From contig JAISCS010000021.1 in the NCBI GenBank assembly GCA_031265365.1, positions 1 through 36,694 on the forward strand: DNA of 36,694 nucleotides, in the 5' to 3' direction. Below, piece by piece: positions 4,006 through 34,820 of the stretch. Origin of the DNA: Verrucomicrobiales bacterium. Its GTDB lineage: Bacteria > Verrucomicrobiota > Verrucomicrobiia > Methylacidiphilales > JAAUTS01. The position numbers and the translations under genes were made by a program. Positions within the stretch are counted from its first letter, which is position 1; every line of letters begins with the position of its first letter. The notes under the pieces were generated by a model, which ran no database searches, was not told the DNA's origin, and was given only the letters and a program-made list of their open reading frames with translations.

Positions 4006-4103
4006 CCACGAATGAACACGAATACACCCGAATTTTGCATTTTGCTTTTTGCATTTTGAACTTTTGAATATACAAATTGTATTTATTCAAGCAGAATAGC
4101 GGC

Positions 4104-4472
4104 ATGGACAACAGTGAACTTGAGCGGAAGCAATTAGGCCCCACGGCGGCGGCGTGGGCGGGGCGCGAGGAGGAATTAACGCGGCAGTGGCGGACGGTGG
4201 CGGCGCGGCATCATCAGTTGACGGTGGAAATCGCGCTGACGCGGTTGGAGCGCGTCGAGGCGGCGGTGCGGGAAGCGCTGCCGGCGGTGCCGTTTCAGCG
4301 GCTGGCGGTGTTTGACGTCAAGCCCGCTGATAATCTGGATGAACTGCCCGATTATCTGGCGCGGCTGGCGCGGGAAATTGAAATCCTGCAAGTGATTCGT
4401 GACGAGGCGCAGGGGCGGGTGTTGCTGGTCGGCAAACGAAAGGCACCAGATGAGACGCAAGCAGGAGAGTGA
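4104..4472 (+). CDS. Hypothetical protein (start re-set to ATG 4104)
   Basis: MDNSELERKQLGPTAAAWAGREEEL...; the ORF-track start at 4077 lies inside the palindromic promoter site. Confidence 0.55.
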   Translation: MDNSELERKQLGPTAAAWAGREEELTRQWRTVAARHHQLTVEIALTRLERVEAAVREALPAVPFQRLAVFDVKPADNLDELPDYLARLAREIEILQVIRDEAQGRVLLVGKRKAPDETQAGE

Positions 4473-4758
4473 GGACGCGGCGCTGTTGCTGGACTGGGTG
4501 TGCGGGATGGCGCTGGCGATGGGCAAGGGCGGCAAGGCGGCGGCGGCGGCGCGGCTGGGTATCACGGCCAGCGGGCTGTCGCACATGCTGCACGTGCCGG
4601 GGCGGTCGTTCGACCAGAAGACGATGAACGCGGTGGCGTGGATTCAAGCCTCGCGCAATGAGACGGACACGCCGGCGGTGATTGAGCGCAAGCAAGTCGG
4701 AGCGCAGGTCTTTGAGTTGCGCGCGACGGGGGAATGGACGTGGCGGCGAGGAGGATAA
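4450..4758 (+). CDS. Small helix-turn-helix-like protein
   Basis: MRRKQESEDAALLLDWVCGMALAMGKGGKAAAAARLGITASGLSHMLHVPGRSFDQ; AAAARLGITASGLSHML resembles an HTH. Confidence 0.5.
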   Translation: MRRKQESEDAALLLDWVCGMALAMGKGGKAAAAARLGITASGLSHMLHVPGRSFDQKTMNAVAWIQASRNETDTPAVIERKQVGAQVFELRATGEWTWRRGG

Positions 4759-4921
4759 AATTCCAAATTTCAAACTTCAAATTTCAAGTAAATCCCAATG
4801 AGCACAAAACTTCAAAAATCAAAACAAGACACGGGACCGGCGGGTTTGGGATTTGGAGGTTGAGAGTTGGAATTTAATTGGCATTTGAAATTTGGAGCTT
4901 GGAATTTGGAGCGTAGCGACA
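4759..4921. repeat. Interspersed repeat family R1, full copy (A/T-rich inverted arms plus GC-rich core)
   Basis: aaattccaaatttcaaacttc...aaaacaagacacgggaccggcgggtttggg...gaatttggagcgtagcgac. Confidence 0.85.
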
Positions 4922-34609: not shown

Positions 34610-34751
34610 TTCAGCGTTACCGGAAATTGGAAAGCCGAAAGCAGAAAGCTGAAATTATTTCTGTTTTCAGCTTTCAGCTTTCTGCTTTCGCCTGTCCCAA
34701 ACGCTGAACTACCCCGTCCGCTGGCGTGGCCACCCCTTCACGGAAGGGGAA
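34568..34751. repeat. Long three-part inverted repeat overlapping the 3' end of the giant gene
   Basis: Arms 34568-34589/34730-34751 (21/22), 34598-34618/34700-34720 (21/21), 34636-34654/34672-34690 (19/19). Confidence 0.85.
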
Positions 34752-34792
34752 TTGTCAACGCGGCAGCGGCATTTGGCGGTTGGATTTTTTTC

Positions 34793-34820
34793 TTGCACTC
34801 GTGAATACTTTCTGTATATC
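34793..34820 (+). promoter_or_regulatory. Putative promoter with palindrome ATACTTTCTGTAT
   Basis: TTGCAC (34793-34798), 16-nt spacer, TATATC (34815-34820); palindrome-class site 34805-34817. Confidence 0.55.

What the first reader, a model, noticed from the sequence alone, without database searches (positions are those of the whole stretch)
4070..34817. One 13-bp palindrome class (ATACA-N3-TGTAT) at five module starts, in register with a -10 box
Sites: ATACAAATTGTAT 4070-4082, ATACAAAAAGTAT 7361-7373, ATACAACATGTAT 12184-12196, ATACAAAATGTAT 19968-19980, ATACTTTCTGTAT 34805-34817. Each is in a non-coding gap and is followed by TAT(A/T)T. Plausible -35 boxes exist at several: TTGTGC-17-TATAAT (7352-7380) and TTGCAC-16-TATATC (34793-34820). 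This looks like a phage regulon (repressor/activator operator overlapping the promoter, or a dedicated sigma target) firing the small-gene, pre-portal, capsid, tail and fibre modules together.
Basis: partly seen in the sequence, partly recalled or inferred. Interest (0 to 1): 0.75.

Follow-up and report, generated by a model that had tools for sequence, protein, structure and literature searches.

The report
Phage-specific palindrome at module promoters
A virus of an environmental bacterium carries the same short mirror-image DNA signal in front of five consecutive gene blocks and nowhere else, most likely the on/off site of a viral switch protein sitting on the start signals for reading those genes; a real and tidy finding, but of a familiar kind.

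Summary
All five ATAC-N5-GTAT sites are at the stated coordinates, all lie in gaps between genes, and all continue into TAT(A/T)T in the direction of transcription. Expected by chance: 0.06 in the window, 0.006 in its gaps. There are no one-mismatch copies, and a weight-matrix scan separates the five (25-33 bits) from everything else not overlapping them (next 8.4). The rest of the 2.76-Mb assembly has eight matches, none with the phage-type AT-rich sequence.

The window is a partial genome of an SU10-type podovirus. 46 related loci found by terminase (45 at about 43-51% identity), including a syntenic relative, lack the motif at module starts. Many instead have a sigma70-type promoter just after terL, the gap where the window carries site 2. 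This supports reading the sites as promoters.

Two claims weaken. The -35 boxes are no better than shuffled upstream sequence (P=0.19), and the "-10 in register" claim fails at site 2, whose TATAAT is shifted by 4 nt.

Most likely: a 13-bp operator for a dimeric phage regulator overlapping the -10 of five host-polymerase promoters. Main rival: a promoter element read by a phage sigma factor, as in phiEco32 (tAATGTATAtA). No binding protein is demonstrated.

The parts
4070..4082 (+). site 1, ATACAAATTGTAT-TT; 21 nt before the ATG at 4104 of the small-gene/HTH/terminase module
7361..7373 (+). site 2, ATACAAAAAGTAT-AT; gap between terL and the portal module (first gene ATG 7432); TATAAT at 7375-7380
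   Evidence: relatives carry a sigma70-type promoter in the same gap
12184..12196 (+). site 3, ATACAACATGTAT-AT; 80 nt before the major capsid gene
19968..19980 (+). site 4, ATACAAAATGTAT-AT; CTGACA(19956)-16-TATATT(19978-19983), then 6 nt to ATG 19990: predicted leaderless start
34805..34817 (+). site 5, ATACTTTCTGTAT-AT; 24 nt before ATG 34842 of the last (fibre-like) module
4450..4758 (+). 102-aa candidate HTH protein, second gene behind site 1; candidate binder
   Evidence: HTH-like stretch by eye; only sub-threshold Pfam HTH matches (E 0.12); AlphaFold pLDDT 58, helical; no homologue found
11907..12134 (+). 75-aa ribbon-helix-helix (CopG/Arc-type) protein, last gene behind site 2 and 49 nt upstream of site 3; favoured candidate binder
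   Evidence: Pfam RHH_3 E 3e-4 (21.0 bits, cut-off 21.6), PHROG 876 transcriptional repressor E 6e-4; HP0222 E 0.04
4923..7245 (+). terminase small (4923-5510, weak) and large (5650-7245) subunits
   Evidence: 45 viral relatives at about 43-51% identity
7985..10141 (+). SU10-type portal
   Evidence: Pfam SU10_portal 2.8e-17
12277..13494 (+). SU10-type major capsid protein
   Evidence: Pfam SU10_MCP 1.5e-22
19990..34609 (+). module behind site 4, ending in a 3754-aa polyvalent protein (23345-34609)

Best explanation
The five sites are copies of one 13-bp operator (core ATAC-N5-GTAT) for a dimeric phage-encoded regulator, built into the -10 region of the five promoters that start the phage's consecutive, co-directional gene modules. 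Host RNA polymerase reads a -10-like TAT(A/T)T that begins inside the right half-site, and a bound dimer covers the spacer and -10, so occupancy gates all modules together (repression by occlusion is the simplest form). The favoured binder is the 75-aa ribbon-helix-helix protein at 11907-12134, because Arc-type proteins bind two 4-bp half-sites about this far apart as a dimer of dimers; the 102-aa HTH candidate at 4450-4758 is the alternative. Shown: the sites, their phage specificity, direction, discreteness and module-start position, and that relatives have ordinary promoters in the post-terL gap. Inferred: that they are promoters, that a dimer binds, which protein it is, and the sign of regulation.
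For: Five sites, all intergenic, expected 0.006-0.06. All eight invariant palindrome positions are mirror-symmetric, as a dimer operator needs, while the extension WT is on the downstream side only, as an overlapping -10 needs. At site 4 the ATG lies 9 nt after the palindrome and TATATT-N6-ATG gives a normal -10 to +1 distance, so the element must overlap the core promoter rather than sit at a classical upstream activator position. 12 of 32 distinct relatives have a sigma70-like promoter scoring at least 9/12 directly after terL (1.8 expected from random stretches of the same loci; none of 20,000 simulations reached 12), and the syntenic relative has TTGACA-N18-TAnACTGG at module starts: this clade starts modules with host-type promoters in these gaps. 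The same half-sites and spacing (CATACnnnnnGTATG) form the operator of the TetR-type repressor DitR, one copy lying between -35 and -10 (PMC9342713). Motif and both small DNA-binding genes are absent from the relatives held.
Against: The -35 boxes are at chance level (P=0.19), whereas relatives with host-type promoters keep a clear TTGAC; a merely repressed promoter should also keep its -35. No binder is demonstrated: the RHH match is just below its Pfam cut-off, the HTH call rests on sub-threshold matches and a low-confidence model. Absence of the two genes from relatives is weak evidence, as small proteins diverge fast. A repressor on late modules of a phage with no known lysogeny genes lacks an obvious purpose.
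Confidence: 0.45

Rival explanations
1. A phage-specific promoter element read by a phage-encoded sigma factor (or modified host polymerase) without a -35, as in phiEco32, whose sigma gp36 reads tAATGTATAtA at three middle and three late promoters; the mirror symmetry would be partly coincidental.
For: The downstream half (site 4 AAAATGTATATT, site 3 ACATGTATATA) resembles phiEco32 TAATGTATATT/A. The head module is SU10/phiEco32-type. No -35 above chance. Five directional copies at module starts is how phage sigma promoters are distributed (PMC4331800).
Against: No sigma domain was found among the window's annotated proteins. None of 29 related records matches Pfam Sigma70_r2, while phiEco32's own sigma does in the same search, though those relatives also lack the motif. 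phiEco32 sites show no upstream ATAC; full symmetry of eight invariant positions would be coincidence.
Confidence: 0.33
2. Promoters of a phage single-subunit (T7-like) RNA polymerase.
For: Few, discrete, phage-specific, directional copies at module starts.
Against: Identity stops about 5 nt after the palindrome, with no conserved +1 region; no RNA_pol match among window proteins or in 30 records (a search without a positive control).
Confidence: 0.05
3. N4-type single-stranded hairpin promoters for a virion RNA polymerase (5-bp stem, 3-nt loop), since the phage encodes a 3754-aa protein.
For: The ATACA-N3-TGTAT geometry at sites 1, 3 and 4; sites 1 and 3 fold as DNA hairpins better than shuffles.
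Against: Sites 2 and 4 fold no better than shuffles; the giant protein shows LPD3 and a weak ART-PolyVal match, no polymerase domain; sites precede late structural modules, not early genes.
Confidence: 0.03
4. A host regulator's site used by the phage.
For: Host regulators can control phage promoters (general knowledge).
Against: The host assembly has eight other pattern matches, none with the phage-type AT-rich sequence; the reversed control pattern has ten in the whole assembly. The consensus version is absent from 60 related genomes.
Confidence: 0.08
5. Chance repeat or low-complexity artefact of AT-rich gaps.
For: Gaps are AT-rich (41% GC) and full of dispersed repeats shared with the host.
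Against: Gap-only shuffles give 0.006 expected; the two-peaked score distribution; the sites are not part of the dispersed repeat units.
Confidence: 0.03

Closest known systems
phiEco32/SU10 gp36 (ECF-type sigma) promoters, tAATGTATAtA
   Same: Several copies at middle/late module starts in a phage with SU10-type portal and capsid; the ATGTATAT half is shared with sites 3 and 4; no clear -35.
   Different: No upstream ATAC and no palindrome in phiEco32 sites; no sigma gene in the window; relatives lack sigma.
DitR (TetR family) operator CATACnnnnnGTATG of Stenotrophomonas maltophilia
   Same: Identical ATAC-N5-GTAT core; one copy between -35 and -10; proposed to be bound as a dimer (PMC9342713).
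   Different: Chromosomal efflux regulator; no TetR-family protein is annotated in the window; flanking C/G not conserved here.
P22 Arc / CopG ribbon-helix-helix repressors
   Same: Small phage/plasmid RHH protein; Arc binds as a dimer of dimers to TAGA boxes in a 21-bp operator (PMC12645479); from memory TAGA-N5-TCTA, the same spacing, overlapping a promoter.
   Different: Half-site sequence differs; RHH assignment here is borderline; Arc acts at one promoter, not five modules.
Cluster A mycobacteriophage repressor stoperators
   Same: One phage-specific site repeated across a phage genome.
   Different: Stoperators are asymmetric and read by a monomeric repressor (PMC9283540, title and abstract only); ours are symmetric and overlap -10-like boxes.

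Membership tests
phiEco32-type phage sigma regulon | phage encodes a sigma factor | tested here: inconclusive
   No sigma match among window proteins or in 29 relatives (phiEco32 rings as control); the window is an incomplete genome
phiEco32-type phage sigma regulon | motif tAATGTATAtA 6-8 nt upstream of starts | tested here: not met
   Only sites 3 and 4 approach it; sites 1, 2 and 5 differ in the AATG part; no TAATGTATA in the sites
Arc/CopG-type RHH operator system | RHH protein encoded by the phage | tested here: inconclusive
   RHH_3 21.0 bits against cut-off 21.6; AlphaFold pLDDT 61 without the beta strand
Arc/CopG-type RHH operator system | two short inverted half-sites one helical turn or less apart | tested here: met
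   ATAC-N5-GTAT at five sites
Arc/CopG-type RHH operator system | the protein binds the site | not testable with these tools
   needs EMSA or footprint
TetR-type (DitR-like) operator system | TetR-family protein encoded nearby | tested here: not met
   no TetR family match among window proteins scanned
sigma70 promoters with a -35 | -35 hexamer at 16-18 nt better than chance | tested here: not met
   P=0.19 over the five sites (spacers 15-19 allowed); only site 4 passes the standard scan
N4-type hairpin promoters | stable 5-7 bp hairpin with 3-nt loop at every site | tested here: not met
   sites 2 and 4 do not fold beyond shuffles

The most novel reading that the evidence does not exclude
The phage has replaced the host-type late promoters of its clade by a private class that lacks a -35 and is recognised through a palindrome directly abutting the -10, read by a phage-encoded sigma or polymerase-recruiting dimer not yet described.
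Probability: 0.2. Interest if true: 0.6.

Novelty: new member of a known kind. Interest (0 to 1): 0.36.

Why it matters
If true, it gives a clean, testable cis-regulatory code for a phage group with no studied transcription programme that I could find, from an uncultured bacterial lineage. It also documents a promoter turnover: relatives sharing the head module start it with host-type promoters, this phage with a private palindromic element. A specialist would find it useful rather than surprising.

Tried and rejected
Single-protein searches of viral contigs with capsid and terminase found nothing; alignment queries were needed. The two genome-contig scans and the HTH query in viral contigs found no relative. 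No relative genome among the 60 nearest to the host has the capsid gene; one of 390 in its class has a distant match. Exact-motif search of 60 relatives of the host found only the window. Dyad discovery in gaps of relatives gave no comparable repeated palindrome, but the gene calling there was crude and did not recover the window's own sites as the top hit, so those negatives are weak. Hairpin-promoter idea rejected. Host promoter profiling from 20 contig stretches was too noisy to define the host -10. AlphaFold models of both candidate regulators were too poor for a fold search. Rfam found nothing. Literature search for the exact motif returned only DitR.

Full report
What is there. The window is the whole of contig C45 (36,694 bp) of a 2.76-Mb, 78% complete assembly. 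It is a partial tailed-phage genome with its genes on the + strand: C5-methyltransferase, nucleoside deoxyribosyltransferase-like protein, DnaB helicase, terminase, SU10-type portal, capsid and adaptor, a PKD/beta-propeller protein, a 3754-aa polyvalent protein, and small genes at the right end. The contig stops at both ends without a terminal overlap, so part of the phage is probably missing.

The sites. No one-mismatch copy exists. An 18-column matrix gives the five + strand sites 25-33 bits; apart from windows overlapping the sites themselves, the next best scores 8.4. Every site is followed by (A/T)T, so that TAT(A/T)T begins inside the right half-site; the left side shows no mirror of this. 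The element is therefore a palindrome plus a directional extension.

Phage specificity. The assembly outside C45 has eight matches, and the reversed control pattern has ten in the whole assembly. None of the eight has the phage-type AT-rich sequence, and the two whose surroundings were checked lie inside long ORFs. The consensus form is absent from 60 related genomes. The 46 loci found by terminase, 45 of them about 43-51% identical over most of the protein or over a shorter piece, have almost no ATAC-N5-GTAT and none followed by the (A/T)T extension apart from one GC-type copy in a distant member (L220, followed by AT). The syntenic relative G390 (terminase 47%, capsid 41%) has none in the 22 kb and 21 kb loci taken from it.

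Position. The sites head five consecutive blocks: 4104-7245 (small genes, HTH candidate, terminase), 7432-12134 (portal to RHH gene), 12277-19959 (capsid to head/tail genes), 19990-34609 (internal/giant proteins) and 34842 to the end. The other gaps have none. In relatives, the gap after terL, where the window carries site 2, carries a sigma70-like promoter: 12 of 32 distinct relatives score at least 9/12 within about 150 nt of the terL stop against 1.8 expected, often TTGAC-N17-TAnnnT with an ATG 6-9 nt later. G390 has TTGACA-N18-TAnACTGG at several module starts, and TTTACA-N18-TACACT before its capsid gene. This is the best evidence that the window's sites are promoters.

What fails. The -35 boxes: the summed best -35/-10 score over the five sites is reached by 19% of shuffles of the upstream DNA, and only site 4 (CTGACA-16-TATATT) passes a standard scan. 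The TATAAT of site 2 starts 4 nt further downstream, relative to the palindrome, than the -10 of site 5, so the common register is with TAT(A/T)T and not with a consensus -10.

Mechanism. Two readings remain. (a) A dimer operator overlapping the -10. For: complete symmetry of the invariant positions; a documented operator with the same core and position, that of DitR (PMC9342713); two small DNA-binding candidates in the window, the RHH one in a family that binds paired short half-sites (Arc: dimer of dimers on TAGA boxes, PMC12645479; the N5 spacing of Arc's operator is from memory). (b) A -35-less element read by a phage sigma, as phiEco32 gp36 reads tAATGTATAtA (PMC4281155, PMC4331800). For: loss of the clade's -35, similarity of the right half at sites 3 and 4. 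Against: no sigma gene in the window or in 29 relatives, with phiEco32 as positive control; no ATAC in phiEco32 sites. Because a dimer on ATAC-N5-GTAT would cover the first bases of the -10, reading (a) points to repression or gating rather than classical activation; the missing -35 points to (b). I give (a) 0.45 and (b) 0.33.

Site 4 is the most informative: TATATT, six bases, then ATG 19990. If the -10 is right, the message starts at or next to the start codon (leaderless). G390 shows the same arrangement at three module starts with an 8-nt gap. Both are inferences from spacing.

Verdict.

Noticed in passing
window 4759-4922, 5511-5649, 7843-7984, 10142-10230: Gaps share a dispersed, partly inverted repeat (TTCCAAATTTCAAACTTC...GGAATTTAATTGG...TTTGGAGCGTAGCGAC) that also occurs on many host contigs (38 matches, e.g. 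C157, C19, C15): a host-type intergenic repeat family inside a phage contig.
   Followed up: partly
window 23345-34609: 3754-aa polyvalent protein with LPD3 and a weak ART-PolyVal match; contains an internally repeated stretch (SKRANRLP.AD..GS...MSDPQRAA.QHNRTSPAGG.SEA..LAANGQPS.LTAEEYARATSPEFKAR.GDWEAL near aa 1102-1180 and 2287-2370).
   Followed up: no
L108/L192 (G390); L209, L211, L196, L183, L208: Relatives show a conserved sigma70-like promoter at the very end of terL, often with ATG 6-9 nt after the -10, i.e. predicted leaderless transcripts.
   Followed up: partly
window 290-1180: C5-cytosine methyltransferase of only 296 aa; matches the catalytic part but looks short at the C-terminus.
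   Followed up: no
window 15974-18157: 727-aa protein with PKD domains and DUF5122 beta-propeller repeats in the virion module.
   Followed up: no
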